Shown here: positions 9,230-37,408 of the stretch, one piece after another
Layout: every line of letters starts with the position of its first letter
How positions within the stretch are numbered: the stretch's first letter is position 1
Virus record (IMG/VR): IMGVR_UViG_3300020205_004331
Coordinates: 1-37,408 of that record
Strand: one strand, 5' to 3'
Length of the DNA stretch: 37,408 nt
Source of the DNA: a virus
Notes under the pieces: generated by a model
What the model was told of the DNA's origin: nothing
The model's input: the letters and a program-made list of their open reading frames with translations, nothing else
Database searches by the model: none
Program-made: the position numbers and the translations under genes

Positions 9230-9839
9230 TAGCATGAACCTGAATCTCTTCAGCTATCGGGGGAAGTTCAGCGGGCCTCACAGCAATATCAGCATTCAAC
9301 GTCTCTACATTACAGGTAAAATAAATCCAAGTATAGCGGAAATTCCCTGAGGGAGAAGCGTTTATGACCCTATAATTGCTCGGTGATCTATCCTGCATAG
9401 CCGCATTAAATGGCAACTGTATCACATCACCGGTACGCAGCATCCTATCACCAAAGAGCCCATATATCTGTCGATGGCTAAATACGACTTCTGCTTTATT
9501 AACAGAATCAGCGCCCCATTTCTTCAGTTCTGTCTCGATAGGAGAGGGTTTAAAAAACGCTTTGAGCAGCTCAGAAGTCCAATAGGTGGGATCAGCGTCT
9601 TCATCCCACACCACATCATAATCAGTGTTATCAGTGCGGACGAATACCTTCACTTCTGCGCCACTGATGTTTATCATCTCATCGGCTAAGGTTCTAGCTG
9701 TCTTTATCTCAGGAGCTTCAGAATTAAAAATCGATAGAGACGAATTCTGTTTTTCTGTGTCCGATCTAAAGTCAGGAGCGGCCTCGTCAAACGAGCCCTG
9801 TGACCCAAGCATGTCAGATCCAAACTGATAAATAGACAT
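9204..9839 (-). CDS. Neck protein-like virion protein
   Basis: A 211-residue protein. Residues about 45-75 read LADEMINISGAEVKVFVRTD, and the later segments GDRMLRTGDVIQLPFNA and FRYTWIYFTCNVETL follow the pattern I know from neck proteins of marine T4-like phages (an N-terminal D-E-I-I-G-V-V-Y-P-R-T type motif, then a small beta barrel with G-D-x-I-x-x-P and a strand-rich end). T4 gp13/gp14-type neck proteins close the head after packaging. The SD (GGGAG) precedes the ATG at 9839. It overlaps the next gene by about 26 bases. Family call is moderate. Confidence 0.6.
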   Translation of the reverse strand: MSIYQFGSDMLGSQGSFDEAAPDFRSDTEKQNSSLSIFNSEAPEIKTARTLADEMINISGAEVKVFVRTDNTDYDVVWDEDADPTYWTSELLKAFFKPSPIETELKKWGADSVNKAEVVFSHRQIYGLFGDRMLRTGDVIQLPFNAAMQDRSPSNYRVINASPSGNFRYTWIYFTCNVETLNADIAVRPAELPPIAEEIQVHANGAYRESI

Positions 9840-9867
9840 GAGTTACTCCCTCTGGAGTATCTTTAAA

Positions 9868-10365
9868 TTACGATTTAATCTGCCAAGGAGGGATGGGGGG
9901 CAATATACCACCGAGAAGTAAACCAGCTTGTGCGTCAGTCACATATGGGCTTGGCTCTGGACTCGGTATGTCTTTAAAATCAGGAGAAGGGCAAAAACCT
10001 GTATCATTCATTTTACAATAATCAAAACTCTCAGTCACAGTCTGATCTTCTACAGCCAAACTTCGCAGAATCGCGTAATAATCAATAAGATTATTACAAG
10101 GACAATCTCTAGATTGCTCCGGGAACACAAAAAACCGAGTTCTCCAACCACCCCTGCCCCAGTCTACACCATACTTGACATAAGATCCAGGTATCCCTGC
10201 AAGAGCGTCCTTTAATACCACGTAACCGCTACCGCATTTTAATTCATTGGCATAAGCATACGATAATGTCCTGCTTGAGACATATGAAGTAGGCTCACAC
10301 CCTGGCACAATCAGACGATTGCCGGGCAATATTTCGATTTGGTGTGATTCAAAAACTCTAGACAT
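9868..10365 (-). CDS. Unknown Cys-containing protein in neck module
   Basis: A 165-residue product. It has several Cys (GCEPTSY near 22, KCGSGY near 43, DCPCNN near 87, then DYCKMNDTGFC) and a Pro-rich C-terminus (DIPSPEPSPY, ILPPIPPW). No catalytic motif was seen. The SD GGAGCC is five bases before the ATG. It lies between two neck-like genes, so a virion role is likely but unproven. The Cys pairs could bind zinc. Confidence 0.5.
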   Translation of the reverse strand: MSRVFESHQIEILPGNRLIVPGCEPTSYVSSRTLSYAYANELKCGSGYVVLKDALAGIPGSYVKYGVDWGRGGWRTRFFVFPEQSRDCPCNNLIDYYAILRSLAVEDQTVTESFDYCKMNDTGFCPSPDFKDIPSPEPSPYVTDAQAGLLLGGILPPIPPWQIKS

Positions 10366-10375
10366 CTCAGGCTCC

Positions 10376-11158
10376 TTACCACGTATGAACGCCTAGTGGT
10401 TCACCTAAGAGAATAGCTTCATTGATGATTTCTTTTTTCTTTTCTTCGCCTTCGGTAACCAACTCTCCACCGTCATAACTGATGCTCCCACCATCTGGTG
10501 TCGGCATGCCATTGATTTTACGGCGACCAGCCCCGAGAGCGATTCTGGCCTCTGCTGTCATCATTTCATAAGTGAGGTATCTTGCCTGCGGAGACCTAAA
10601 ATGAGTTACAACTGGAATATATTGAACAACAACCGGAAAAGCACCCTTTGGAGTCGGGTATAGCCTGATCTTTTGATCCTTTGAAGAAAGGCTATCGCCG
10701 GTCCCAGTGCCTGTCCCTTCATTAATCACCTCCCAGTGACCCTCAGTGCCAAGCACCTTTTGGGAAAACTTTCTATAAGCGGCAAGAAGATGGTAATCGA
10801 CAAGTATGTTTTGGATGCCAGATATATTTCCTATATTGAAAAGAAACGACTCCGCTCCGAATACGTCATCTATTCTAGTCGTGAGTGGGTCCCAATTACA
10901 AGACTGAATCCAATATGCATCTGCAGGCATTGGATACGTATTTTTCAAAGGCGTTGTATAAAACATAGCTAGCTTCTGCTCGCGTGGAAAGTATCCCGCG
11001 ATAAAGTCACCGGCCACTTTAAAGATAGTTTCCCATTGATCTTCTTGAATTTCAACGGCAACATTTGGGTAACCAAGTTTAGATAACACGTATTTCTTAC
11101 ACGGGTCGCTGTTTAATTTTAAGACAGAAGGTAAGTCTTGAGGCCCTATAATCGCCAT
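10376..11158 (-). CDS. Neck / head-tail connector protein candidate
   Basis: A 260-residue protein from the ATG at 11158, which has a strong AAGGAG SD seven bases upstream; the longer frame to 11191 lacks this. The N-terminal half has DQWETIFKVAGDFIAGYFPREQ. The C-terminal segment runs from YLTYEMMTAEARIALGAGRR through PDGGSISYDGGELV to a helix ending LLGEPLGVHTW. This layout, with 'W/LG.N..K..G...PGG...' and a final helix, follows the T4-like neck/connector proteins of marine phages. Position upstream of the other neck genes supports this. It begins the neck block after a roughly 110-base gap (11159-11270) that holds no ORF. Confidence 0.58.
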   Translation of the reverse strand: MAIIGPQDLPSVLKLNSDPCKKYVLSKLGYPNVAVEIQEDQWETIFKVAGDFIAGYFPREQKLAMFYTTPLKNTYPMPADAYWIQSCNWDPLTTRIDDVFGAESFLFNIGNISGIQNILVDYHLLAAYRKFSQKVLGTEGHWEVINEGTGTGTGDSLSSKDQKIRLYPTPKGAFPVVVQYIPVVTHFRSPQARYLTYEMMTAEARIALGAGRRKINGMPTPDGGSISYDGGELVTEGEEKKKEIINEAILLGEPLGVHTW

Positions 11159-17523: not shown

Positions 17524-18455
17524 TTGATCATTCCATCAGCTTCTTGATGATACCCAAGACCACGCAATAAAGTGGCACACCTGTGGTGATAAGTATGATT
17601 ATTCAACACTTCTTCTTTCTGCTTTCGGGCTACATCTTTTGCAAGATCTGGATTACTCAAATAACGCCCTACTAAGTTTTTATAATCTTGAGCGTCTCTA
17701 GCCACCACCATCGATGGGATCATGGCTTTAATACTTGGCACCGGATCATGTATTGCGAGCACTCCTGATAATGCTAATTTGAAGGCTCTCTCAGGGATGT
17801 CGAACCCATATTGGTGAGTGTGTGCTTCCGATATACAAGGACCAATCTTACCAGTGTTTAAAAAACTGTTTGGTTCATCTTCGGGAAGTCTTTCCACTTT
17901 GTACTTAGAAGGCCATTCTCCCCAACCTCTAATGGAGCATTGATACGAATCAAGGACCGGCATAAGGTACTCGTCTATCGTTTTAGCTTTATAAGGCCAT
18001 CTACCACCAAGGTAGACTATATCATTATGTCGCCATAGACCCAGGTCATGATACTGCAACCTATCACCAGCAACAGGCATCGGTACCCAAGGTATACGGA
18101 ATACCGATACCCAATACGACCAAATAATAGCATCATTTTTAGAACCATACCCAAACACTAAATCAGCTTTGTTATTGACCACCCATTCTTTGTCAGCATC
18201 ACTTTCATTGATATTTCCTATGTCAATAGGCCCGTATGGATTAACATGTATGGCTACTTTAGCCCTTCTAACATCTGGTATAGGTTCTTTATGCCCAGAA
18301 CATCCAATGTACACGTCTGGGTCAAAACTTGACCACTGTGCCAGGTCGCCAGTATATCTCTGTATCTCGTGCCCCTTATCGGCAAAGGCACTCATGAGAG
18401 AATCTGTTATGTAACCCCATGCACCGCCCACTCTTTTATTCATTAAGATCTTCAA
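17520..18455 (-). CDS. GT-B glycosyltransferase (CgeB / Glyco_trans_1_2-like)
   Basis: A 311-residue protein. N-terminal Rossmann-like start KILMNKRVGGAWGYI; C-terminal donor-binding region has CISEAHTHQYGFDIPERAFK, then an LALSGVLAIHDPVPSI patch and the repeated segment DYKNLVGRYLSNPDLAKDV, the typical CgeB-like layout. It lacks transmembrane segments. The best start is TTG at 18455, giving the first beta strand; an ATG at 18443 would truncate it. Overlaps the upstream stop (TTGA). It likely uses a nucleotide-sugar donor; the acceptor is unknown. Confidence 0.72.
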   Translation of the reverse strand: MKILMNKRVGGAWGYITDSLMSAFADKGHEIQRYTGDLAQWSSFDPDVYIGCSGHKEPIPDVRRAKVAIHVNPYGPIDIGNINESDADKEWVVNNKADLVFGYGSKNDAIIWSYWVSVFRIPWVPMPVAGDRLQYHDLGLWRHNDIVYLGGRWPYKAKTIDEYLMPVLDSYQCSIRGWGEWPSKYKVERLPEDEPNSFLNTGKIGPCISEAHTHQYGFDIPERAFKLALSGVLAIHDPVPSIKAMIPSMVVARDAQDYKNLVGRYLSNPDLAKDVARKQKEEVLNNHTYHHRCATLLRGLGYHQEADGMIN

Positions 18456-20374
18456 CAGTTCACCATTCCTGTTACTTGGGAGATCTGCAACTCAATTCTT
18501 TGACGTATTGTTAGCTCTTTTAGCTTGTCATGTATCGCTTTGTTGGTATCATGATGTTTAAACCACCCATCAGATCTACCGTGATAAAGATGCAAAAGAT
18601 TATATGTTCGATTATCTAGATATTTTGATCCTCCAGACATTCTTTCGTAAAAATCACAATCCTCACACCCGTAACCCCAAAAGTCCTCGTTAAATCCGCC
18701 TATTTTCCAATAAGTATCCCTTGTGCACGCTAAAGAACCTCCCTCATAATATCCAACAACACGCTCAAAAGCAGGATCTGTAACTACACCAGAATTGTTT
18801 ATACGATCAGTACTCGCCCTATCCGCGTACACAACCGTAGATCCCAAATGGCAAGACTCAAATTCGTCTAACACATCACTCACTTCTGATGTGTATCCAT
18901 TTATAGCAAGCATATCAGCATCATGTAAAATTATCTTATTGCTTGTTGCTTTAGAGACGCCAAGATTAAATGCTTTTGCTTTATTAAAAAAATGTTCCTC
19001 TGCGACACTGACCTTATAATATCTTAATGGTTCATACTGTGACACATCAATTTTTTGTATATGGTCTTCTTCTACCAATATTATCTCTATGTCGGGGTAC
19101 TTTTGTGCCCTTATATTGTTCAATACTGTGTTGAGAGAGCCTGTTCGTTCCTGCTCTCTAAAAGGAATTATAAATGTGACCTTTGGAATAGATGATTCTT
19201 GAGTAAATTCATGCTTTAATTTCTTCAGGCTATCATATCTGTCACGTGCAGATTTTAGACATTCATTCTTATCATCTATTGAAGTATTTTCTTTGTGCAG
19301 TCTGATATATGATTCGCTGCCATGGAGATCATAGTATCCTTCTTTCTGCATTTTATTGGCAAAAGCTCTTGAAGACCATTCAATATGTTCTAATCCATAG
19401 TATCCAAAATCCTCATTGAATGCTCCAACGGCACGAATATATTCATTTGTAAAAGCCAACAGTGCGCCGTGTGGCTTATCATTGACTACATTAAACTGCA
19501 CTCCATTTACAACGGTGCTCATGCCTTTATCTGCGCCATATATTCCGGCCTGTCTAAAGACGAGATGGTGCATCATCGATTTTTTCAAACCATCAGCATA
19601 AAAATATTCCCAACCAGGCTTCAAAATTTCTATATCATCATTTAATAAAATGCCGTATTTGAATCTGCTTAAAGCACGTAATAATCTGTTTGAGTTACCA
19701 GCCACTCCAAGTCTAGTTTTGTTTTTGATGACCACAATGTTTGATTGATCGCGTAATTCATCTAAGTACATGATCAATTCAGGGTCAGTACTACAATCAT
19801 CACTCACAAAAACAGTCGTAGCATTTAGGTTAGTGTTTTGGTTTATGCTGTTAATAAGACGTTCTAGCGATTCTTTTCGGTTGTATGATAATATACCTAC
19901 TCCTATATTGTTGCTGATAGGATATAAGCCCTTACTGTTTTTAATCAAGCCAACAGCCGTTCGTTGGATTTTAAGTCTTTCATCTTCCGAAACCTGCTTA
20001 CCTACTATCTTATTAACTAATATTTTTTCCTTCAATGGCTGTCTTGTATTCTGCCTGCTGCCAATAATTGTACGCCGCTGCGGTTGCGGTTGCGGCTGCG
20101 GCTGCGGCTGCCTGTGATGCTGCACCAATTGAGTTATAATTGGAGCTATAACTGGTTTGGCCGGAGTATTTCCTGTCTCAGCTTTCTGACTTATAATTGG
20201 CGCGGACGGCTTTAATGTTTCATTGCTATTCAGATTAACCAAAAACCCTCTCTGCCTATAAATCTCATAATATGCAGGCAGATTTACTACCTGCCTGCTC
20301 TTGATCTTGACGATTTGTCCTTCTGGTCCTGTTATGTGCACTGTATGATGGTGCGGGTTTTGATATTCTGGCAT
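18452..20374 (-). CDS. Bifunctional glycosyltransferase, two GT-A domains
   Basis: A 640-residue protein from the ATG at 20374 (AGGAGATAGC SD). Residues 1-50: small N-terminal domain (PHHHTVHITGPEGQIVKIKS). Residues about 50-115: Pro/Gln-rich linker with a QP repeat (about 89-100). First GT-A domain about 155-390, with IGVGILSYNRKESLERLI and LLNDDIEIL (D246, D247). Second GT-A domain about 400-620, with VTFIIPFREQERTGSLNTVL, the LHDADML acidic motif near 490, and GGFNEDFWGYGCEDCDFYERM, a typical galactosyltransferase-like acceptor loop. Two active sites suggest alternating sugar addition. First gene of the cassette. Confidence 0.85.
   Translation of the reverse strand: MPEYQNPHHHTVHITGPEGQIVKIKSRQVVNLPAYYEIYRQRGFLVNLNSNETLKPSAPIISQKAETGNTPAKPVIAPIITQLVQHHRQPQPQPQPQPQRRTIIGSRQNTRQPLKEKILVNKIVGKQVSEDERLKIQRTAVGLIKNSKGLYPISNNIGVGILSYNRKESLERLINSINQNTNLNATTVFVSDDCSTDPELIMYLDELRDQSNIVVIKNKTRLGVAGNSNRLLRALSRFKYGILLNDDIEILKPGWEYFYADGLKKSMMHHLVFRQAGIYGADKGMSTVVNGVQFNVVNDKPHGALLAFTNEYIRAVGAFNEDFGYYGLEHIEWSSRAFANKMQKEGYYDLHGSESYIRLHKENTSIDDKNECLKSARDRYDSLKKLKHEFTQESSIPKVTFIIPFREQERTGSLNTVLNNIRAQKYPDIEIILVEEDHIQKIDVSQYEPLRYYKVSVAEEHFFNKAKAFNLGVSKATSNKIILHDADMLAINGYTSEVSDVLDEFESCHLGSTVVYADRASTDRINNSGVVTDPAFERVVGYYEGGSLACTRDTYWKIGGFNEDFWGYGCEDCDFYERMSGGSKYLDNRTYNLLHLYHGRSDGWFKHHDTNKAIHDKLKELTIRQRIELQISQVTGMVNC
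20079..20108 (-). repeat. Hexanucleotide tandem repeat encoding Gln-Pro
   Basis: Five consecutive units of TGCGG(T/C) on the plus strand plus a partial one, encoding a run of alternating Gln-Pro inside the linker of the double glycosyltransferase. A perfect-period 6-mer that keeps frame would allow the linker to grow or shrink by slippage. The protein stays in frame at any unit number. Confidence 0.9.
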
Positions 20375-20375
20375 G

Positions 20376-21008
20376 CTATCTCCTAATCTCCACGTACAAC
20401 GGTGCAAAATTTATTGGGTCGTCGTCATTCAGTCTGAACCTGCTTGGTCTTATTAATAGATTCCCTTCATAAGACCCTTGCCCCTGAATGATGGCGTCAA
20501 TGACTGATGGGTTTAGTATCACTGTATTTTTTGTCTTTAAAGTATTCACAAGTTTACCGAAGACATCTTCTATAAGCCCTGGGCTCACACATTTATTTAA
20601 CGATGTCCTAACATCTACTAACGTCAGACTATCATCAACGATACTAAAGTGGTATTGTGCTTGTTCTATCTTTATGATATTCATAAGCCTAACGTAGTTA
20701 ACTAGCTCGTCCTTTACGAATTTCCTACTGGTATTGCCAAGCGGTGTTGCGTCAGATTCTAATTCTATCAAATTACCAGAAGCATCTGAAAAAACAGTGT
20801 AAACGTCGTCCTTTTGGGTGTCGCGGTATATCAAAACAGTCAGATCCACACTACCAGGGTGCTTTTGAACATAGCAATATATGTGCTCTAATCTTCTTAG
20901 CTCAGTATGGTCGTAGTACTTTGGGTAAGGCAGAACTTTTGGTACTTTAAATATACCAGATTGTGACGTTATGGACGTAGTCATGTTGGCTGATCGCAAA
21001 GACGCCAT
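20376..21008 (-). CDS. Unknown 210-residue protein
   Basis: Start ATG at 21008 with an AAGGAA SD; it overlaps the previous gene by 62 bases, an unusually long overlap (the alternative ATG at 20984 has no SD). The protein is mixed alpha/beta (PSVIDAIIQGQGSYEGNLLI), with no recognised motif or signal peptide. It ends one base before the glycosyltransferase start at 20374, so it is co-transcribed with the cassette. Function unknown. Confidence 0.55.
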   Translation of the reverse strand: MASLRSANMTTSITSQSGIFKVPKVLPYPKYYDHTELRRLEHIYCYVQKHPGSVDLTVLIYRDTQKDDVYTVFSDASGNLIELESDATPLGNTSRKFVKDELVNYVRLMNIIKIEQAQYHFSIVDDSLTLVDVRTSLNKCVSPGLIEDVFGKLVNTLKTKNTVILNPSVIDAIIQGQGSYEGNLLIRPSRFRLNDDDPINFAPLYVEIRR

Positions 21009-23390: not shown

Positions 23391-23398
23391 TATTTATG
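23391..23398 (-). promoter_or_regulatory. Candidate T4-late-like promoter box
   Basis: CATAAATA on the minus strand, one mismatch from the T4 late box TATAAATA, placed about 35 bases before the ATG at 23355 and at the very end of the 5' nuclease gene. Weak: eight bases and no sigma factor gene seen here. Confidence 0.22.
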
Positions 23399-24245
23399 CA
23401 AGATTCTTTAATGGGAAAACCAAATCATTGAACTCATTTAAAAACCCATTGATCTTCTGATCCTGAGCTAAAGACAAAATAACCTGCCTATCAAAAGTAA
23501 CTTGCTCAGCTAGCTTCCTCCTCACATATATTGTATTATTCAAAATCTTCGGACACATACTCAAATCAATCAGTAAAAGATTCCTGTTATAAACGCTCTT
23601 ATCATTTAAAGCTAAAAATTCAGCCAAAAGCTTATAATCATCTGCGAGCTTAATTGCCTTCTTTGGTCCAATACCACGATACCCAGGTATATTATCTGAT
23701 TTATCACCCTGCAAAGCCTTAACCAAGACAGGATTACTGACCGGAACAGCGACCTCTTTTTCCTTTCGTGGTTCGAACAATATGTTACTAGAATATCTAT
23801 AAGGTATTTGTATCATATCACTATCTGTCGAAATGACAATGGTTTTAGCTGGGTGCAATACAGACACAGCAGAATATATTAAATCATCAGCTTCCATATA
23901 CTTTCTCTGATATTGTCTTACCCCCATAACTTTAAACATCTCTTCACATATAGCGGTTAATTTTTTCAAATCATCAGATATGTCCATAACATAAGGATTC
24001 TTTTCCCTGTCTTTATAAGTCGTAAGAATCTTTCTGCGCCATACATCAGACCTTGGTGCATCCCAAAACATGTGTATGGAAGATGGGCTATAATTCCTTA
24101 CCCACAAATTAAGCAAACGCATAAAAATAACGAAGGGGTGGACTGGATGTCCACCCCTCGCTTCTTCTGCTCTATGGGCATAGACTGCTCTATAGAGCGC
24201 ATTTCTTACATCGACAAGCAAAGCTGGTCGAACCTGATCAATCAT
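23394..24245 (-). CDS. 5'-3' exonuclease / flap endonuclease (T4 RNase H / T5 D15-like)
   Basis: A 283-residue nuclease from the ATG at 24245 (24254 and a TTG at 24266 are alternatives). The acidic cluster is present: D12 (LLVDVRN), D62 (MFWDAPR), E118-D120-D121 (MEADDLIY), D141/D143 (STDSDMIQI), D181/D184 (QGDKSDN), then the helix-hairpin-helix GYRGIGPKKAIKL. Removes RNA primers and flaps; corresponds to the N-terminal domain of Pol I, here a separate gene. Overlaps the SSB gene end by eight bases. A strong hairpin inside (24134-24158) may attenuate it. Confidence 0.88.
   Translation of the reverse strand: MIDQVRPALLVDVRNALYRAVYAHRAEEARGGHPVHPFVIFMRLLNLWVRNYSPSSIHMFWDAPRSDVWRRKILTTYKDREKNPYVMDISDDLKKLTAICEEMFKVMGVRQYQRKYMEADDLIYSAVSVLHPAKTIVISTDSDMIQIPYRYSSNILFEPRKEKEVAVPVSNPVLVKALQGDKSDNIPGYRGIGPKKAIKLADDYKLLAEFLALNDKSVYNRNLLLIDLSMCPKILNNTIYVRRKLAEQVTFDRQVILSLAQDQKINGFLNEFNDLVFPLKNLA
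24134..24158 (-). promoter_or_regulatory. Terminator-like hairpin inside the 5' nuclease gene (attenuator candidate)
   Basis: A perfect 10-bp GC-rich stem (AGGGGTGGAC / GTCCACCCCT) with a 5-base loop, followed on the minus strand by TCGTTATTTTTATG. It overlaps codons 30-38 of the 5' nuclease, about 85 bases after its start. It is downstream of the SSB gene, whose own end carries no terminator, so it could reduce nuclease mRNA relative to SSB mRNA unless ribosomes follow closely. Confidence 0.5.
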
Positions 24246-25299
24246 CGTCGTCATCCAATTGGTCAAGGAGTGACTTCACTTCATCGTCATCATCGTCTTC
24301 TTCTTCGATGATTGGAGCTGGCTTTGGCTTAGCCTTTGTCTCTTCGACCTTAGCTGCTCTCTTAGGAGGAGGAGCCGGTGTGTCGTCCTCATCTTCCTCT
24401 ACAATAGGAGGCTTAGCTGCTTTAGCTGGCTTCCTAACTTGCTGATCTTCCTCTTCATCGCTATCAAAGCCAGAAGAATGAGCCATTTGAGGCTTGCTCT
24501 CCTCAGCGTCATCCCCGTAGATCAGAGTGTTGCTGAGCTTCTTGATCTTTTCGCGATCTGGAGGCTCAAGTCTATCCCAAATATTAATTCTCTGGGACAA
24601 TAGCTGAGTAATCATTTTAGTATTGGGAGTCCCATCTTCATTTTTAGCGATTGGGACCGGCTTTTTGTCATTACCGACACTGAACTTGCTGGTCTTATAA
24701 CCATTCGTTTTACCGTTCATTTGAACTTGTAATTCAAATAGCCATGCTGAGTTCTCATCGAAGAATACGCCGTACGGTTCCAGTTCTTCATCTGGATCAA
24801 TCACATCCGGAGCATCACGGTTGATGCAAGCAGTCCACATATCAAACAGCGTCTTAGGGGCCTTATAATACATAATGCGCCCACGAAGCTCTTCCGGATT
24901 CGCCTTAACGTTTGGGAAGAAGATATTAACTACATAGCTCGAGTTGGGGAGCCAGTCAGTTCTAATCTTCTGACGCTCAGCGTCTCCTAGGCTCTTGTCG
25001 CGGAGTAGTTTAAGACCGAAATCACACAGAGCACATTCCGAACCATCATAAACACGAGGGCAAGCGTGCGGATGGTTCTGAACCCAGTGTTGACCGTAGT
25101 TCACGAAGAACAGGTCCATCGATTTTTCTACGATACCAGCTTTGAGCTTATCACCTTCCAGAAGGCCAGGCAGGATATAGAACCTATATTTCAAGGTTTC
25201 TCCTGGCTTTGCTTTTGCTGGTCTGAATTCGTCAGGGTCAGACTTGCTGCCGCCGAATTCTTTTAGCTTCTTCTTAATCGCGTTCAGATCATATGACAT
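24238..25299 (-). CDS. Single-stranded DNA-binding protein, gp32-like
   Basis: A 353-residue protein. N-terminal basic cooperativity region (KKKLKEFGG). Zinc site: a His around 71-78 with C80, C89 and C92 (CPRVYDGSECALC), spaced like T4 gp32's H64-C77-C87-C90. Residues 100-250 form the OB-like core. The C-terminal 85 residues are a Pro/Ala/Lys-rich linker and a long acidic tail (EEEDDDDDEV ... DDDDD), the protein-interaction tail of gp32-type SSBs. Coats ssDNA at the fork and works with RecA and the mediator candidate. It has a potential attenuator downstream. Confidence 0.9.
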   Translation of the reverse strand: MSYDLNAIKKKLKEFGGSKSDPDEFRPAKAKPGETLKYRFYILPGLLEGDKLKAGIVEKSMDLFFVNYGQHWVQNHPHACPRVYDGSECALCDFGLKLLRDKSLGDAERQKIRTDWLPNSSYVVNIFFPNVKANPEELRGRIMYYKAPKTLFDMWTACINRDAPDVIDPDEELEPYGVFFDENSAWLFELQVQMNGKTNGYKTSKFSVGNDKKPVPIAKNEDGTPNTKMITQLLSQRINIWDRLEPPDREKIKKLSNTLIYGDDAEESKPQMAHSSGFDSDEEEDQQVRKPAKAAKPPIVEEDEDDTPAPPPKRAAKVEETKAKPKPAPIIEEEDDDDDEVKSLLDQLDDDDD

Positions 25300-25326
25300 T
25301 GCGTAGGTCCCTTTGGGAAAAGTGCA

Positions 25327-25869
25327 TTAGCTTCGTTCTTGTTCTTGCCTTTTGAAGCCCGCTAGACTGCGGGCTAATTCTGCTTTGATTCGGAGCGCCT
25401 CAATCGTGTGGTAAATCTTACCACATGTCATCTGCGCCTTCTCATACTTTAACTCCGCATCTCTTATTTCAGAGTCTGCTTCAGCTATGGCTTTGACCTG
25501 CTCAACGGTCAATCTGATCTTGGCGATGGAAGCCTCTGAAGTGATCCTCTCTATAACCCTCCCTTTTCTAGCCTTTAGCTTCCTCTCGGCAACAGCAACC
25601 GCAAGCTTCAATTCTGAGTATATCGCAGCCCAATAGGCGTATTGGGCAGGAAGCCTCATCATCTGGTCTTCAAGCATATCGTAATCAAGATCCAAATCTG
25701 GCAACATATCGACCTCAATAGTCTTATATGTCAACTTACCAGTTTCTTCACTTTTAGACTCCACTACTTGAAGCTGTACCATGAACTTAAACAAAGTAGA
25801 ATTAGCCAATTCTGCTGGCAAATTCTCTTCGATCCAGATCGGACGCTTTGATTTATTCTGCTTCGCCAT
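25327..25869 (-). CDS. Recombination mediator candidate (UvsY-like)
   Basis: A 180-residue product, helical. The ATG at 25869 has a GGAGAC SD; an upstream GTG (25881) adds four residues. The segment PAQYAYWAAIYSELKLAVAV followed by AERKLKARKGRV and then helical EIRDAELKYEKAQMTCGKIY is like UvsY (a basic helix after a Y-W-A tract, a second long helix ending in EALRIKAELARSL). UvsY loads recombinase on SSB-coated ssDNA. Gene order gp32-like then this fits, and RecA is 4 kb away. Homology is tentative because UvsY sequences are short and divergent. Confidence 0.5.
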   Translation of the reverse strand: MAKQNKSKRPIWIEENLPAELANSTLFKFMVQLQVVESKSEETGKLTYKTIEVDMLPDLDLDYDMLEDQMMRLPAQYAYWAAIYSELKLAVAVAERKLKARKGRVIERITSEASIAKIRLTVEQVKAIAEADSEIRDAELKYEKAQMTCGKIYHTIEALRIKAELARSLAGFKRQEQERS

Positions 25870-25911
25870 TATTGTCTCCACGTCTTAAATACACACTTAA
25901 TTGATATAACA

Positions 25912-27117
25912 TTATACGCTATAAAAATCTTTAAAGTGACGATAGGCACGCCATTTCTTACCGATTGAGACCTTCACTGGGAAAATATATTCCTCCTCCA
26001 GCACCCCATCAAACGGTCTTAACATGATATCGCAGACCTGCCTGATGGTACTATTCACTTCAGCCTTATCTGGGGGAGAAGCCACCACAATCGAGTCATG
26101 GATATCACATACGATCCTTGAGCCCATCTTCTCCCATATTTTCCTAATTGCTATATGCATCGCGTGAGCCACAGACCCCTGCATGACACCATTAAAAGAC
26201 GACAACCGATTCTTCTCATCTGTGACAATAAATTTTCGTCCAAGAACAGTGCTCATAGAATCCCTGGCAGAAAGACGCATGATCCAATCACCAAGATCAG
26301 GAAAAGCCTTATCGAAAACAATGCTATTGTAATCCAAAGAATTGATGCATCGCAAAAGTATTAGCTTACATTCATCCCGAGAGAACGTCTGATCCAATTC
26401 TTTCTGCCTACTAGCATCATTTAGAATAGATGCAAGCTTAGTGTATGGGTCAGAATCGACGAAGGCAGATATTAAAGCTTTGTCATTAGACAACATAGAA
26501 GCCACCCTAATATCAGCACAAATCCAATCGAAATGAATTAAAACATCATTCTCCGAGCCATATATAGTAGTCACATGATCCTTAGTAGAGAGACCCTGGA
26601 TATTAAACTCAAGGCTCTTACTCCTGCCAGTATGCGTCCTCTGACTCCAAATGGGAGAAACATGAGTGTAGTTATACAGCAGCCCGCTATTTTCTAGGTC
26701 TGCGTATACTATCGAAGAATTGGCCAGATATTTCTGGTAAACATTAATTTTATGCTTAGCCATTTCTTCGAATATCTCTTCAGTATATCTCTCATCAGAT
26801 CTTACGCAATCATCACTGTCTTTCCTGGCCATATGAAAATCGAAAACATTATATTCGCGATAATCAATCGGTAAATCCAGTATGGTGATTAAATCTCTAA
26901 AATCTTGGCAAACAATCTCGAAATTCTTATCATTTAATTTTAGGAAACACTCTCTTGCTTTGAGTGTTTCCTTCTTTATTTGCTTGATTGTTTTTATTGA
27001 GCCTTCTCTGTACAGATCGAATTTATATGTCTTGCCATCTACGAGGAATGATATAAATCTCGGCAGTTTCTTATTTTTATCTCTATTGAAGATAACTGCT
27101 ATATATGCTCTTCGCAC
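25912..27117 (-). CDS. Family A DNA polymerase (PolA-like), no proofreading, altered active site
   Basis: A 401-residue protein on a GTG start with strong SD (GAGGTACGATA). Residues 1-100: small domain, perhaps a degraded RNase H-like exonuclease (ending NVFDFHMARKD). Polymerase core: THTGR (161-165), motif A DWICADIR (D197; D202 where E. coli has Glu710), O-helix region R247-K251 kept but L255 and N259 at the positions of Phe762 and Tyr766, then LGRK near 293, N309/Q313, motif C IHDSIVV (H340 D341 S342, Ser where Glu883 is). The two catalytic Asp (D197, D341) remain, so it may be active. Companion to the DnaE-type enzyme. Confidence 0.8.
   Translation of the reverse strand: MRRAYIAVIFNRDKNKKLPRFISFLVDGKTYKFDLYREGSIKTIKQIKKETLKARECFLKLNDKNFEIVCQDFRDLITILDLPIDYREYNVFDFHMARKDSDDCVRSDERYTEEIFEEMAKHKINVYQKYLANSSIVYADLENSGLLYNYTHVSPIWSQRTHTGRSKSLEFNIQGLSTKDHVTTIYGSENDVLIHFDWICADIRVASMLSNDKALISAFVDSDPYTKLASILNDASRQKELDQTFSRDECKLILLRCINSLDYNSIVFDKAFPDLGDWIMRLSARDSMSTVLGRKFIVTDEKNRLSSFNGVMQGSVAHAMHIAIRKIWEKMGSRIVCDIHDSIVVASPPDKAEVNSTIRQVCDIMLRPFDGVLEEEYIFPVKVSIGKKWRAYRHFKDFYSV
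26943..26971 (+). terminator. Terminator-like hairpin, antisense within the polymerase gene
   Basis: A perfect 10-bp stem (GGAAACACTC / GAGTGTTTCC) with a 9-base loop, followed on the plus strand by TTCTTTATTTGCTTG. It lies within the family A polymerase coding region, so it would act only on antisense (plus-strand) transcripts. May be coincidence. Confidence 0.3.
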
Positions 27118-28028: not shown

Positions 28029-29363
28029 TTACACTTCTCTAACGACCATGCAATCATACTGAATCTCACAATTAATCGAGACGAGCTTAGGACCATTTCT
28101 ATTCTTAGCAACATACATGGTAATTCGAGGTGGTTGCGCCTGCCTATCAGCCTCAGATTGATTTAAACTGACAACATAGTCAAGAGAGAACTGCTTTGCA
28201 AAACTCTCAGACGCCTTAGTAACATCAATCATGCTGTCACTGCCAGCACCACTACGATTAGTCTGAGTAGCAGTGAACACCAGGACATTCTCATTCTTAG
28301 CCAAACCACGAATCTCGTTAGCGACGTGCTTTTGCTGAGAATAGTCATCCTTGTTATAGTTAGCATTTCTACTAATCATAAGATCCATATAGTCAAGAAT
28401 CACTACATCAGGCTTCCATCCCTCTTGACGTTTTAAGCTATCCATCAGAGCATATACGTGTGCAACACTACATTCATCAGGCGGCATCTCATGGATTAAT
28501 AACCTCTTGTTATAAGTCTGTTTTGTGCTGGTCATCACTCTTCGAACAAGTTCTTGGTGATGGTGGATGTCATCCAATCTAACACCAGTAAGCGTTCCCA
28601 CAGCTCGCAGCGCAGTCTTTAAAACATCCATTTCGAAAGTAATGAAGAGAACATCCTGACCAGTTTTGCCGTTGGATGTGTGGCCTCTTAAGGAACTGAT
28701 TGCATTGTTGACTAGAAACACAGATTTTCCGACGTTTGTCGGAGCCAACCAGCACACGACTTCTTTAGGCGAAGGACCACCATTGTTCAAAATATGATCT
28801 AACCTTTGGAACCCAGTGGTCCTGTGCTCGATCGCATCAGGCTCGAATAGTAATTCGAAATTCTCTAAGAACCAGAATCCCTTGTCGCCGACATCAGCAA
28901 TCCTGTTGGCTTCGTTAACGATTTTCTCGATATATTCAAAGTTCTCACTATTATAGGCTTCAATCGCTTCCTCGCTGTAAAGCATGCCGAATGCTCTCAC
29001 CTTTGCCCATTTAAGGAGTGTGTCCTTAATTAAAGGTATATCTCGCGGATTGCTTTTCTTTTCTATGATCGGCAAAATAATATCAAAAGGATCGCTAGAC
29101 GTCAAAGTAGATTCAATGACATCTTTTAGTATAGCTCTGGTAGGGACAACATTATATTTCTCATATAAGTTTAAGATCGTGGCAATGACATAACGACACT
29201 CCATTCTCTTAAACATATCGGGTTTTAGAAATCTTATCACCCCGGTAATGAATTCGGGGTGATCTAGTGATAACGCTATTATTGCTTCTTCTTGATATGG
29301 ACCAAACGGCTTGCTAGCGTTATCTTCTTGATCTAGATTGCTCAGTATTTCCAGCGTGCTCAT
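28029..29363 (-). CDS. Replicative DNA helicase, DnaB/gp41-type
   Basis: A 444-residue helicase. N-terminal DnaB-like helical domain (about 1-150, with GPYQEEAIIALSLDHPEF), linker, then the RecA-like domain: TTGFQRLDHILNNGG (183-196), Walker A APTNVGKS (207-214), Walker B DVVILDYMDL (about 319-328), sensor TATQTNRSG (about 370), and a C-terminal arginine-type motif region (NRNGPKLVS). Unwinds the duplex ahead of the fork, recruiting primase. ATG at 29363 overlaps the upstream stop (ATGA); TTG at 29369 is an alternative. Located beside recA. Confidence 0.9.
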   Translation of the reverse strand: MSTLEILSNLDQEDNASKPFGPYQEEAIIALSLDHPEFITGVIRFLKPDMFKRMECRYVIATILNLYEKYNVVPTRAILKDVIESTLTSSDPFDIILPIIEKKSNPRDIPLIKDTLLKWAKVRAFGMLYSEEAIEAYNSENFEYIEKIVNEANRIADVGDKGFWFLENFELLFEPDAIEHRTTGFQRLDHILNNGGPSPKEVVCWLAPTNVGKSVFLVNNAISSLRGHTSNGKTGQDVLFITFEMDVLKTALRAVGTLTGVRLDDIHHHQELVRRVMTSTKQTYNKRLLIHEMPPDECSVAHVYALMDSLKRQEGWKPDVVILDYMDLMISRNANYNKDDYSQQKHVANEIRGLAKNENVLVFTATQTNRSGAGSDSMIDVTKASESFAKQFSLDYVVSLNQSEADRQAQPPRITMYVAKNRNGPKLVSINCEIQYDCMVVREV

Positions 29364-29674
29364 GTGCAATATTTCTGCTTCTTGGTCTGTATAGCAAGTA
29401 GAACCGCTTGTGCTCTCATCTCAGCGAGAGTCAACGCCGTGCATTGATCTATCATCTCATCTTCTGTGAAATACAACACAGCACCATTAATGAGAGATGT
29501 CCTGTCGCCATAAAGTGATGGAGCCAATGGCTGACTAGCAGACGCCTGAATCGTATAAACCCAAACATTATTGATAAACGACATAGACGATACTTTTACT
29601 GGCTCAAGGAAACCAAGAGCAGCAGATTCCCGAAGGTAAACGACGTCACCGGGATTGTATATTGGGCCTGTCAT
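29360..29674 (-). CDS. Unknown 104-residue protein
   Basis: Small protein with an SH3/KOW-like start (YNPGDVVYLRESAALGFLEP) then VKVSSMSFINNVWVYTIQAS, and a helical, acidic end. It overlaps both recA (ATGA) and the helicase start (ATGA), implying tight co-translation with them. Role unknown; possibly an accessory of recombinase or helicase. Confidence 0.6.
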   Translation of the reverse strand: MTGPIYNPGDVVYLRESAALGFLEPVKVSSMSFINNVWVYTIQASASQPLAPSLYGDRTSLINGAVLYFTEDEMIDQCTALTLAEMRAQAVLLAIQTKKQKYCT

Positions 29675-30804
29675 TCTGAACCTCCATCAAGGATTCCATC
29701 ATCTAAGCCATCTTCATCTAATGTTTCTTCGACATTAATAGCGAAGTTCTGACGTTTCTGTATATCGCCAAACATCGCTTTATACGTTCGGTCTTTAATC
29801 TCATTCATAATAGTCTCATTAGAACGGACATTTTGAATAGTATTATTGATACCATTACCAACGTGGGTTTCCCCAAAATAGTAGTTGCTTCCACGTTTAG
29901 TAAAGACTTTTGCTACCTTCTCTGATATTTCAATCAGGCTAGCTACTTCGTCGATACCAAATATAGGTCTCACATCTTTTCCTACGCATATATCATATTC
30001 AGCCTCCAGAAATGGTGCAGCTACTTTGTTCTTTACGACCTTTGATCTCGTCCTAAATGCGATAATATCGTCTTTTTCCTTAATAGGTGCGATCTTTTTG
30101 ATTTCCATGCGAATTGAAGCATAGAATTTAAGAGCACGACCACCAGGTGTATGCTCAGGATTACCAAACATTTGACCGACTTTTTCACGCAGCTGATTTA
30201 TGAAGATAATAGTAGTTTTGGTATTATTGCACTTGCCTCTGATCTTTCCGAGACCTTTGCCCATCAGTTGAGCTAAGGCTCCCATATTTGCGTCGCTTAT
30301 ATCACCCTCAAGAATAGACCTCGGTACTAAAGCAGCGACAGAATCGACAACCACTAGATCCACAAGCCCAGAATCAACGATTCGTTCTATGATCTGGAAC
30401 CCTTCTTCCCCACTATCTGGCTGCGATATTATAAGGTTATCGGTGTTGACGCCTATCTTTTTGGCCCATTGGATATCAAGGGCGTGCTCGGCATCAATGA
30501 AGGCCACAACTCCGTTTCTTTTTTTGTCTTTAAAATAATGGTTTTGGCAGGCTTTCGTTATTTGTAGACATGTGGTGGTTTTACCACCTGACTCTGGGCC
30601 GTATATCTCTATTATTCTACCTAGTGGTAATCCACCACATCCTAACGCATAATCTATCGATGCTACTTGCGTTGAGAACACTTGTACGTTGACTATTGAT
30701 CCATTTCCCTGTGCGATAGAACCACTTCCAAAATCTTTTTCAATTGACTGCAACAAATCATTTAGATTTGTGCTCTTTATTATCGTCTTCTTTTCCTTGG
30801 CCAT
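29671..30804 (-). CDS. recA: RecA recombinase
   Basis: A 377-residue RecA of bacterial type. Walker A GPESGGKTT (69-77; the usual SS is SG here), E106, Walker B LVVVDSVAAL (150-159), loop 1 after it, loop 2 NQLREKVGQMFGNPEHTPGG (203-222), and RALKFYASIR (223-232). Acidic C-terminal tail (ETLDEDGLDDGILDGGSE). It is not a UvsX-type protein. RecA pairs homologous DNA and protects forks. The start overlaps the previous gene by 47 bases. Works with the gp32-like SSB and mediator candidate. Confidence 0.95.
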   Translation of the reverse strand: MAKEKKTIIKSTNLNDLLQSIEKDFGSGSIAQGNGSIVNVQVFSTQVASIDYALGCGGLPLGRIIEIYGPESGGKTTTCLQITKACQNHYFKDKKRNGVVAFIDAEHALDIQWAKKIGVNTDNLIISQPDSGEEGFQIIERIVDSGLVDLVVVDSVAALVPRSILEGDISDANMGALAQLMGKGLGKIRGKCNNTKTTIIFINQLREKVGQMFGNPEHTPGGRALKFYASIRMEIKKIAPIKEKDDIIAFRTRSKVVKNKVAAPFLEAEYDICVGKDVRPIFGIDEVASLIEISEKVAKVFTKRGSNYYFGETHVGNGINNTIQNVRSNETIMNEIKDRTYKAMFGDIQKRQNFAINVEETLDEDGLDDGILDGGSE

Positions 30805-34422: not shown

Positions 34423-34964
34423 GATGAACTAGACCAGGATGATTCAACAGGCACGTTTTGTTTAGAAACCCAGTAACTATATCTATCTTTACAAATACAA
34501 ATTTCAAGGTCCCTGGAGGATGTTTCTACTGAAGCATTCTTCCTAAAATCGACCCCACCACAGGAGCATACATTCTTAGAAATACCATTTTTCCCGCATT
34601 TTAAGCAGGCAAATAACTGCTTAGACATATTGACAGTTACTTTGCCAAAAACAGCATAATAAAAAACATCAGAAGACACAAGATCTATACCAGTTAAACC
34701 ACAAAAGTGCTTTACGATACCAGTCTTGTTGTTCATGCTAGAAGTATAAACACTAACGACTTCGTCTGAGATACTTTCATAACATACAGTACAAAAATCC
34801 AAAGATTTTTCCGGCTTTTGCTGTAGAATATCTGTTATAGGTGGCCTCCGACCACCATATTGCTTCACCTTCATACAATTCACACTATAATAATCAAAGT
34901 CTTCCTTATTTGTCGATTTGCACAAATCACATATGATTCCTGTTTGGTCTTGTGTTTGCATCAT
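34419..34964 (-). CDS. Multi-Cys zinc protein
   Basis: A 181-residue protein with four Cys pairs: CDLC (12-15), CTVC near 58, CLKCGKNG near 118, CSCGG near 131, and CICK near 156. The start overlaps the polymerase end by 38 bases. Likely binds two zinc ions and nucleic acid or protein. The C-terminus is Ser-rich. Family unknown. Confidence 0.62.
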   Translation of the reverse strand: MMQTQDQTGIICDLCKSTNKEDFDYYSVNCMKVKQYGGRRPPITDILQQKPEKSLDFCTVCYESISDEVVSVYTSSMNNKTGIVKHFCGLTGIDLVSSDVFYYAVFGKVTVNMSKQLFACLKCGKNGISKNVCSCGGVDFRKNASVETSSRDLEICICKDRYSYWVSKQNVPVESSWSSSS

Positions 34965-37408
34965 ATTTTCTCTTAAGTTTTGATATCTTCTGACGTCTAC
35001 TTACACAAAACATGCCACGAGCATCAAAATCAACAGGGATGTGAATACCGATGCCGGGCTCGAAACACGCTTCATCTTGCATCATCAATTCCTTCTCCCA
35101 CACAAACACCATACACTCAGTTAACCCATCAGTACCATAAATCTTGCCATAAGGCTTACCTGTCTTAGTCATGTCTCTCGTAAATTTACTAGTCACCAGA
35201 TGCAAGAAATTATTTCCTTCGTCCCTAAAAGCGCGATCCTTAGAAGCAGCTATGGTTCCATCACCAATTATCTTATAAGAACCAAGCGGAGAATCGAGGT
35301 AGTACCCAATGTAATCCTGCTGAAAAGCTAACCTCTCTTCTAAAGTAAAATCGTCTAATATGACTTTATTTATATTCTCTAAAGTGATGTCGATCTTAGG
35401 CATCCATTTCGTTATCGCTGTAGGAATTTTATTGCGTTTAGGATAGGCACGGCGGTACTCTTGTTCTTGGCGCTCACGCTCCTTAGCGATCGTCTTCTCA
35501 TCCCATCCTTCCAGGGCCATAATGTCCTTGTGAAGCTGCACCTTCATCTCTCTTATGTCCTTATTCACAGAGCAGTAAAAATACTGATAATATATCCATA
35601 AAGCACGGCTGTTCCCATGACCAGGTAGCTTTTGGAAAGCATTTAACTTGATAAACCTTTCCAAAACAGGCTTACTCCTCCGGCCAGAATCCTCACCACC
35701 AACAAAATCATCAAGGGACTTATAATCACCTTTTCCAGCAAAAACCAAAGCGGCTGAATCACCAATGCCTTTTATGCCAATCATACCCTGATTAATACTG
35801 TCACCAGATACCTTAAAACCACGTTGCAAGTTATTAATGTCAATTGTGCCGAAATGAACACCCTCGGCTGGAGTCTCTGGTTTATACTTTCCACTATACG
35901 TAATCTCAGAAGGTTTCCACTCCTCAGACCTAGCCATACCCATATATCTTGGTAACTTCTTTGCATGGCAGTCACTCATAATCGCTGCCCAGAATTCCGG
36001 AGCGAAGTGTGCCTTAAGCCACAAACACCTCATAGTCAGCAGACAGTAACTCACGCTGTGCGACTTATTAAATGCATACCTACCGAACGTCTCCATCTTT
36101 TCCCACCAGTACGCAGCAGCTTCTTCACCAATCGACTTGCCAGCCCCCTCAAGCCACTTATTCTTAATTGGTTTCAATTTATGTGTCCATTTCTTAGCTA
36201 CAGCCTTACGAGCGTCCTGAGATTCTGGACTGGTAAAATCGGCCAATCTCTGCCATAAAGCTTGCAACTGCTCCTGGTAAACAATCACGCCATAAGTGGA
36301 CTCAAGAACAGCTAGAAAATCAGGATGTAATTTCTCTTTCCACTTCATTAAACTATCATCACGATTGGCCATCGCTTCCGGAATAGACTGCATAGGTCCC
36401 GGGTGACCCATTGCGTTCAATAGCATTAAATCCTCAAAAGATTTCACACCATGTTCTAAAATTCCCTTTGCATTGTCAGTATCGAATTGGAAAATACCGT
36501 CAGTCTTCTTATCGTTAGCCAGCTTCAAAGCCGCAGGATCGTCCATACTCATGAAATGCTTCTCACCACTCTGATCAAAATAATAGCCAATCACACGCTG
36601 CTCAGGATCATTATAATCCATACCCTCTAAATTATCACCAAAAGAAATACCACGATTTTCCTCGATGAATTTACAAGCCTCGAACAGATATTTTACAGTC
36701 TTCAACCCAAGCAAATCCCACTTCACATAACCAAATTTACTCAACTGAGTCGTTCGCCCCTCAGTCCACATACTAACCCAAAACCCCTTCTTACCGCTTT
36801 TAGCAAGTGGAACATTGCCGAACAACGGCCTATCTGTAATAATAAGTGCACCGGCATGCATGCCTTGATTTCTAATCCGTCCAACCAGCTGTTTTGCGTA
36901 ATCGACCACATTAGGATGGATGCGATAGAGCTCAGCAAGTTCTTTCACTTCTGCTAAAAGCTTACCTATGGTTGGAGCTTCAGTATCTGTCTGATTACAA
37001 GATGGACATATTTTCGCATCATGTACCTTACCACAGTCTTGTTCAGCCCCTTCGATTATAATCCGGCTTTTGCAAACAGAAAATCCGCCTTCTCTTAGAT
37101 CATCGACTTCATCGGGCATCACAGTAGTGAAACGCTCTGCCTCGTATCGTGTCATTACCCCCAGAGCGGAAGACACATCTAAAATCGCGCTTCTTAATTT
37201 GTAAGTCTGCCAAGTCCCCACAGAGCAAACACTGCCATAGACATCATCAACGTGGCTCCCATAGCGTTGAATCGCGTATTCCTTCAAAGGATCTCTAGAT
37301 TCTGGTATGCAATCAATATCAATGTCAGGCATGTCAGTATCCTTAGTGATATCTTCGGGATAATGCCCATACTTGTTTTTATAGCTCATAACACTAGAAG
37401 CCGCGATC
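34927..37408 (-). CDS. DNA polymerase III alpha, C-family (DnaE-like), partial
   Basis: The frame is open to the window edge (in-frame codons upstream of the ATG at 37389 have no stop). At least 820 residues: MPDIDID with D22/D24 and KWDLLGLKT with D225 as the polymerase Asp triad, IRNQGMHAGALII (residues 172-184), an extra Cys site (C106, C119, C128, C131) in the palm region, fingers, HhH (GMIGIKGIGDSAALVF near 540) and OB fold (about 700-780). The PHP and N-terminal palm would lie beyond the edge or in another gene. Replicative enzyme of the phage. Confidence 0.9.
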   Translation of the reverse strand, partial: IAASSVMSYKNKYGHYPEDITKDTDMPDIDIDCIPESRDPLKEYAIQRYGSHVDDVYGSVCSVGTWQTYKLRSAILDVSSALGVMTRYEAERFTTVMPDEVDDLREGGFSVCKSRIIIEGAEQDCGKVHDAKICPSCNQTDTEAPTIGKLLAEVKELAELYRIHPNVVDYAKQLVGRIRNQGMHAGALIITDRPLFGNVPLAKSGKKGFWVSMWTEGRTTQLSKFGYVKWDLLGLKTVKYLFEACKFIEENRGISFGDNLEGMDYNDPEQRVIGYYFDQSGEKHFMSMDDPAALKLANDKKTDGIFQFDTDNAKGILEHGVKSFEDLMLLNAMGHPGPMQSIPEAMANRDDSLMKWKEKLHPDFLAVLESTYGVIVYQEQLQALWQRLADFTSPESQDARKAVAKKWTHKLKPIKNKWLEGAGKSIGEEAAAYWWEKMETFGRYAFNKSHSVSYCLLTMRCLWLKAHFAPEFWAAIMSDCHAKKLPRYMGMARSEEWKPSEITYSGKYKPETPAEGVHFGTIDINNLQRGFKVSGDSINQGMIGIKGIGDSAALVFAGKGDYKSLDDFVGGEDSGRRSKPVLERFIKLNAFQKLPGHGNSRALWIYYQYFYCSVNKDIREMKVQLHKDIMALEGWDEKTIAKERERQEQEYRRAYPKRNKIPTAITKWMPKIDITLENINKVILDDFTLEERLAFQQDYIGYYLDSPLGSYKIIGDGTIAASKDRAFRDEGNNFLHLVTSKFTRDMTKTGKPYGKIYGTDGLTECMVFVWEKELMMQDEACFEPGIGIHIPVDFDARGMFCVSRRQKISKLKRKYDANTRPNRNHM

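What the first reader, a model, noticed from the sequence alone, without database searches (positions are those of the whole stretch)
23394..27117. Pol I split into parts: PolA-like enzyme with altered nucleotide-binding residues
The 5' nuclease and polymerase domains of Pol I are separate genes with the SSB and mediator candidate between them. The polymerase has no proofreading domain and carries Asp for the steric-gate Glu, Leu and Asn for the O-helix Phe and Tyr, and Ser for the motif C Glu. It coexists with a DnaE-type replicase. It might be a gap-filling or lesion-bypass enzyme, or one tuned to modified nucleotides.
Basis: partly seen in the sequence, partly recalled or inferred. Interest (0 to 1): 0.65.

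Follow-up and report, generated by a model that had tools for sequence, protein, structure and literature searches.

The report
Phage accessory mini-Pol I
A large virus of bacteria carries a cut-down, altered copy of the DNA-repair polymerase Pol I next to its recombination genes and in addition to its main replication enzyme; hundreds of other aquatic phage sequences carry a similar side polymerase, and a sister virus also carries a gene for making an unusual DNA letter (2-aminoadenine).

Summary
25912-27117(-) encodes a 401-aa family A polymerase (Foldseek to KlenTaq, E 1e-14) in an operon-like row PolA, UvsY-like, gp32-like SSB, solo 5' nuclease. The altered residues (E710D, F762L, Y766N, E883S) are identical in a 52%-identical relative with the same gene row, and the gene is under strong purifying selection (dN/dS 0.03). 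D705, D882, R668, R754, K758, H881 and Q849 are kept, so it is probably active. Corrections: the proofreading domain looks like a shrunken, dead remnant; S883 is ordinary in phage PolAs; 'Pol I split into parts' overstates it, since solo 5' nucleases are common. A sequence-distinct, analogous mini-PolA family has hundreds of hits in viral contigs, in the order mini-PolA, SSB, UvsX, 5' nuclease, DnaB, nearly always beside a full replicase (PolB in 13 of 14 contigs checked). Best reading: an accessory polymerase for gap filling, primer replacement and D-loop extension. Unexpectedly, the ~90%-identical 231.7-kb sister contig encodes a PurZ-like enzyme (Ser at the diagnostic position), and this PolA is changed at three positions also changed in the 2-aminoadenine polymerase DpoZ. 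Z-DNA tuning is open, not shown. The DnaE replicase is itself split.

The parts
25912..27117 (-). accessory family A DNA polymerase, 401 aa (GTG start)
   Evidence: Pfam PF00476 49.2 bits; AlphaFold pTM 0.77 with Foldseek to KlenTaq E 1.4e-14; dN/dS 0.03
26833..27117 (-). N-terminal ~95 aa, exonuclease-like remnant lacking the DEDD residues
   Evidence: model 1 pLDDT mostly 70-91 over residues 1-80 and b-b-b-a-b-a-b order; weak Foldseek hits of ~95 columns to exonuclease domains; full-length apPOL match TMq 0.64; sequence search alone not significant
26623..26631 (-). motif 1 TGR (R668 kept)
26506..26529 (-). motif A DWICADIR: D705 kept, E710 to D
26341..26379 (-). O-helix RDECKLILLRCIN: R754 and K758 kept, F762L, Y766N
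26173..26196 (-). FNGVMQGS: N845 and Q849 kept
26092..26100 (-). motif C HDS: H881 and D882 kept, E883 to S
25327..25881 (-). UvsY-like recombination mediator
   Evidence: PF11056 20.8 bits (below the 22.8 cut-off), phrog_231 and phrog_1069
24238..25299 (-). gp32-like single-strand DNA-binding protein with zinc-type Cys/His cluster and acidic tail
   Evidence: phrog_224 2.8e-5; sequence
23394..24266 (-). solo 5' nuclease (FEN family); acidic active-site motifs conserved
   Evidence: PF02739, PF01367, phrog_107; alignment with the Pol I N-domain
28029..29369 (-). DnaB-type replicative helicase
   Evidence: PF03796, phrog_19
29671..30804 (-). UvsX/RecA recombinase
   Evidence: PF00154, phrog_97
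34927..37389 (-). C-terminal half of a split DnaE replicase (cut by the window edge)
   Evidence: PF17657, phrog_405 440-1024; sister contig has the N half as a separate ORF

Best explanation
The gene encodes a compact accessory family A polymerase, not the replicase. Together with the solo 5' nuclease it supplies what bacterial Pol I does in one chain: the nuclease removes RNA primers and flaps, the polymerase fills the gap, and the phage ligase seals. Being encoded next to UvsY and SSB, with UvsX and DnaB close by, it probably also extends invading 3' ends in recombination-dependent replication and repair. Chromosome copying is done by the split DnaE. Shown: family, fold, kept catalytic residues, conserved row, purifying selection, presence of another replicase. 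Inferred: activity, substrate, partners, and that the D710/N766 pair reshapes the nascent base-pair pocket.
For: Family A fold with D705, D882, R668, R754, K758, H881 and Q849 kept. dN/dS 0.03. The row PolA-UvsY-SSB-5' nuclease is kept in a 52%-identical relative and in the sister contig. A sequence-distinct mini-PolA family lies in the order mini-PolA, SSB, UvsX, FEN, DnaB in 37 of 55 loci of 12 kb or more; the other 18 show only the first part of the same order or no neighbour detected. Replicases beside mini-PolAs: PolB in 13 of 14 further contigs, PolB in G005, LR756508 and Mel-JY01, full exo+pol PolA in Flavobacterium phage immuto; DnaE beside the window-type PolA. ATP-dependent DNA ligase in the sister contig. 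Bacteria lacking Pol I nearly always keep a solo 5' nuclease (PMC12926913).
Against: No biochemistry. The window PolA and the immuto-type mini-PolAs are not close in sequence (4.5 bits; probability 3.8%), so the parallel in context may be convergence. The short fingers region and the D710/N766 pair could mean very low activity. The clade sampled is small: four near-identical copies plus one 52% relative.
Confidence: 0.62

Rival explanations
1. It is a polymerase adapted to 2-aminoadenine (Z) DNA: the phage makes dZTP with PurZ and the altered pocket handles Z:T pairs, as DpoZ does in known Z phages.
For: The sister contig encodes a PurZ-like protein: NF038379 235.9 bits, best of all models; phrog_1211; GQHGSTGKG with Ser at the PurA Asp13 position; 39.7% identity to a Bacillus phage homologue that also has Ser. 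A nucleoside-deoxyribosyltransferase-like ORF lies 1.1 kb upstream, a family that includes DmtZ of Z phages (PMC12884076). phiVC8 DpoZ departs at L455, F459 and S583, i.e. positions 762, 766 and 883, and the 766 change is the only one common to both DpoZ clades (PMC8599892); the window PolA is changed at the same three.
Against: PurZ is seen in the sister contig, not in the window fragment, and scores below the curated cut-off of 300. No DatZ homologue found. DpoZ selectivity is linked to its exonuclease, which is lost here. The same paper says L762 and S883 occur in non-Z phages. The 766 change is Tyr to Asn, not Phe. DnaE would copy most of the genome.
Confidence: 0.18
2. It is a lesion-bypass polymerase like Pol nu or Pol theta: no proofreading, widened pocket.
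For: E710 and Y766 form a hydrogen-bonded pair that controls the nascent base pair, and replacing them gives mutators (PMC4882331). Pol nu and theta are among the structural matches. Many bacterial Pol I proofreading domains are also inactive (PMC12926913).
Against: KlenTaq matches better than Pol theta or nu. The fingers are shortened rather than carrying the insertions seen in theta and nu (from general knowledge). No link to damage-response genes was looked for beyond this row.
Confidence: 0.12
3. It is a catalytically dead PolA relic kept as a structural or loading factor.
For: Unusual O-helix and shortened fingers; loss of exonuclease residues.
Against: Both metal Asp, R668, R754, K758, H881 and Q849 are kept and invariant in the 52% relative; dN/dS 0.03.
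Confidence: 0.06

Closest known systems
E. coli DNA polymerase I (PolA1)
   Same: family A palm with motifs 1, A, B, 6 and C; a 5' nuclease is supplied in the same operon-like row
   Different: nuclease is a separate protein; exonuclease reduced and dead; fingers shortened; D710, L762, N766, S883
immuto-type mini-PolA of aquatic phages (Flavobacterium phage immuto, Microcystis phage Mel-JY01, hundreds of IMG/VR hits)
   Same: ~400-450 aa polymerase-only PolA beside SSB, UvsX, solo 5' nuclease and DnaB, with another replicase elsewhere
   Different: those have H710, F762, Y766, Y881 and S/A883; the window protein does not match their profile
DpoZ of vibriophage phiVC8
   Same: changes at positions 762, 766 and 883; PurZ gene in the sister contig
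   Different: DpoZ has an active exonuclease and insertions, is the replicative polymerase, and has Phe at 766 and Glu at 710
Herelleviridae PolA (SPO1, Staphylococcus phages)
   Same: best local BLAST similarity at the C terminus (40% over 65 aa); HDS motif
   Different: long replicative enzymes with exonuclease domain; normal E710, F762, Y766
split minimal Pol III alpha of group 2.2 jumbo phages (PMC7824862)
   Same: DnaE in two genes in a large myovirus
   Different: there it accompanies PolB; here the N half has a PHP-type N-terminus and no PolB is found

Membership tests
family A DNA polymerase | palm fold with motif A Asp, motif C Asp, and R/K on the O-helix | tested here: met
canonical Pol I (PolA1) | 5' nuclease domain in the same chain | tested here: not met
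   separate gene 23394-24266
canonical Pol I (PolA1) | recognisable DEDDy 3'-5' exonuclease domain | tested here: not met
   no PF01612 in the protein or sister contig; only an exonuclease-like remnant in the models
immuto-type mini-PolA | matches the family profile; H710, Y881 | tested here: not met
   4.5 bits to the 56-sequence profile; D710, H881
immuto-type mini-PolA | row with SSB, UvsX, solo 5' nuclease, DnaB | tested here: met
   same genes nearby in the window in a different order; family order
DpoZ | active 3'-5' exonuclease and replicative role | tested here: not met
   exonuclease lost; DnaE present
DpoZ | replacement of the O-helix Tyr (766) | tested here: inconclusive
   replaced, but by Asn rather than Phe; hhalign leaves a gap there
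DpoZ | dZTP preference over dATP | not testable with these tools
   needs enzyme kinetics
PurZ (sister contig) | Ser in place of PurA Asp13 | tested here: met
   GSTGKG; PurA-like proteins of other phages have GDTGKG
PurZ (sister contig) | NF038379 curated score of 300 bits | tested here: not met
   235.9 bits, though best of all models
FEN-type 5' nuclease (23394-24266) | conserved acidic metal ligands (EADD, TDxD, GDxSDN) | tested here: met

The most novel reading that the evidence does not exclude
The window comes from a large T4-like myovirus whose DNA contains 2-aminoadenine, made by PurZ plus a deoxyribosyltransferase-like enzyme, copied by a split DnaE replicase and finished by a PolA without exonuclease activity whose O-helix pocket evolved for Z:T pairs independently of DpoZ.
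Probability: 0.15. Interest if true: 0.85.

Novelty: new variant of a known kind. Interest (0 to 1): 0.55.

Why it matters
Phage PolA is widely used as a marker of the replicative polymerase and of phage lifestyle (position 762). If small accessory PolAs are common beside PolB or DnaE replicases, PolA genes found in viromes cannot be assumed to be replicases. The conserved row also offers a ready-made minimal set for primer removal and recombination-coupled synthesis. A PurZ-like gene in a T4-like, DnaE-using phage would, if functional, extend Z-DNA beyond the siphovirus- and podovirus-type phages described so far.

Tried and rejected
Single-protein scans of IMG/VR with PolA, 5' nuclease, UvsX and DnaE returned mostly near-identical copies; a DNA pattern for FNGxMQG found the 52% relative. 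A final alignment scan of viral contigs chose poor patterns, and a scan of cellular genomes found no relative. Rhodothermus phage RM378 was considered as a split-PolA precedent and rejected: its split polymerase carries family B motifs and a PF00136 match, with no PF00476 match. Membership in the immuto-type mini-PolA family was tested and rejected on sequence. PurZ-like hits in six other mini-PolA contigs were rejected as ordinary PurA because they keep Asp. Sequence-only evidence for an exonuclease remnant was not significant. The first AlphaFold job with 5 sequences was poor for the polymerase domain.

Full report
What is there. The window is a 37.4-kb viral record with a T4-type tail sheath. 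Its replication genes all lie on the minus strand. In reading order they are the C half of a DnaE replicase, UvsX, DnaB, then PolA (25912-27117), UvsY-like (25327-25881), gp32-like SSB (24238-25299) and a solo 5' nuclease (23394-24266). Gaps of about 30 bp and an overlap of 29 bp between SSB and nuclease suggest one transcript.

The residues. Against E. coli Pol I the protein keeps R668, N675, Q677, D705, N845, Q849, H881 and D882 and has D at 710 and S at 883. Profile-profile alignment places R247 and K251 on R754 and K758 and L255 on F762. Position 766 falls beside a three-column gap in that alignment. The AlphaFold model made from 53 aligned sequences (pLDDT 73.6, pTM 0.77) has one helix from R247 to N259 at pLDDT about 88, exactly the O-helix span, which puts N259 at Tyr766. 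Plain MAFFT runs with distant sequences misplace the helix, including in the alignment used for this model, so the 766 call is likely rather than certain. The model matches KlenTaq at E 1.4e-14.

Constraint. Four near-identical copies (the window's and three in other IMG/VR records) are known, plus one 52%-identical relative (L168) whose genes run PolA, UvsY, SSB, 5' nuclease in the same order. All altered residues are identical there. Window against sister contig gives dN/dS 0.033. The changes are therefore maintained, not decay.

Proofreading domain. The second model matches the exonuclease-plus-polymerase enzyme apPOL along its whole length at TM 0.64, although its own confidence in the first 55 residues is low. 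Sequence search alone is not significant. I read this as a shrunken dead remnant, with moderate confidence. No PF01612 or PF00929 exonuclease was found in the sister contig.

Wider context. Looking at loci fetched with UvsX revealed a second, sequence-distinct group of small PolAs of about 400-450 aa in Flavobacterium phage immuto, Microcystis phage Mel-JY01, a 484-kb uncultured phage and a 146-kb contig. In 37 of 55 loci of 12 kb or more the order is mini-PolA, SSB, UvsX, 5' nuclease, DnaB on one strand; the other 18 show only the first part of that order or no neighbour detected, contig ends being one possible cause. PolB is present in 13 of 14 further contigs carrying a mini-PolA and in three of the first four genomes; the fourth, immuto, has a full exo+pol PolA. 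These proteins keep R668, D705, K758, Q849 and D882 but have His at 710 and Tyr at 881. The window protein does not fit their profile, so the likeness is one of architecture and context. Together this makes an accessory role much more likely than a replicative one. The clade that carries the window PolA uses DnaE instead.

Unexpected link. The sister contig G001 (231.7 kb, 89-92% nucleotide identity to the window) encodes a PurZ-like protein at 213650-214750: best model NF038379 at 235.9 bits (cut-off 300), phrog_1211, and Ser where PurA has Asp13. Published PurZ proteins of phages all have that Ser (PMC12884076). Six other mini-PolA contigs that hit the same model have Asp and are ordinary PurA. 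A deoxyribosyltransferase-like ORF lies nearby, slightly under the Pfam cut-off; no DatZ homologue was found by comparison with phiVC8 DatZ. The phiVC8 polymerase DpoZ departs from the PolA norm at the positions equivalent to 762, 766 and 883 (PMC8599892), the same three as here. That paper also notes that two of the three occur in phages without Z. I therefore rate a Z-DNA role as possible, about 0.18, and not as shown.

How it most likely works. DnaE and DnaB copy the genome. The 5' nuclease removes RNA primers and flaps, this PolA fills in, and the phage ATP-dependent ligase (G001 186755-188095) seals. Because the gene is next to UvsY and SSB it probably also extends recombination intermediates. 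The D710/N766 change affects the pair that in Bacillus and E. coli Pol I structures is hydrogen-bonded and controls nascent base-pair geometry (PMC4882331), so altered selectivity is expected but its direction cannot be told from sequence.

Novelty. Small exonuclease-poor PolAs, solo 5' nucleases and split DnaE in large phages each have precedents (PMC12926913, PMC7824862). The particular combination, the D710/N766 pocket and the pairing with a PurZ-bearing sister phage are, as far as the searches reach, not described. I rate it a new variant of a known kind.

Noticed in passing
G001 174087-176813 and 178345-179739; window 34927-37389: DnaE replicase is split into an N half (PHP-type N-terminus and start of the palm) and a C half with the DIDID catalytic motif, three ORFs apart; both halves carry a copy of the GSLVCYLLG-like stretch.
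   Followed up: partly
G001 85913-87592: Second C-family polymerase ORF, 559 aa, with catalytic DIDLDF, in addition to the split DnaE.
   Followed up: no
G001 213650-214750 (L022:13650-14750): PurZ-like protein with Ser at the PurA Asp13 position, with a nucleoside-deoxyribosyltransferase-like ORF 1.1 kb upstream (212163-212549).
   Followed up: partly
G001 9776-10702: Adenosine-deaminase-like protein, 308 aa; could lower deoxyadenosine in a Z-DNA scheme.
   Followed up: no
L041 3845-8073: DnaE in two ORFs whose ends look like intein halves, with an HNH endonuclease region, in a 90-kb contig.
   Followed up: no
window 18452-20407: Two-domain glycosyltransferase (GT2 plus GT7-like), 651 aa.
   Followed up: no
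G001 101118-102680 (L017:1118-2680): Protein with a match to the Mom DNA-modification family (PF25680, 55.8 bits) and a nuclease-like domain.
   Followed up: no
G001 216197-230017: Single ORF of 4606 aa.
   Followed up: no
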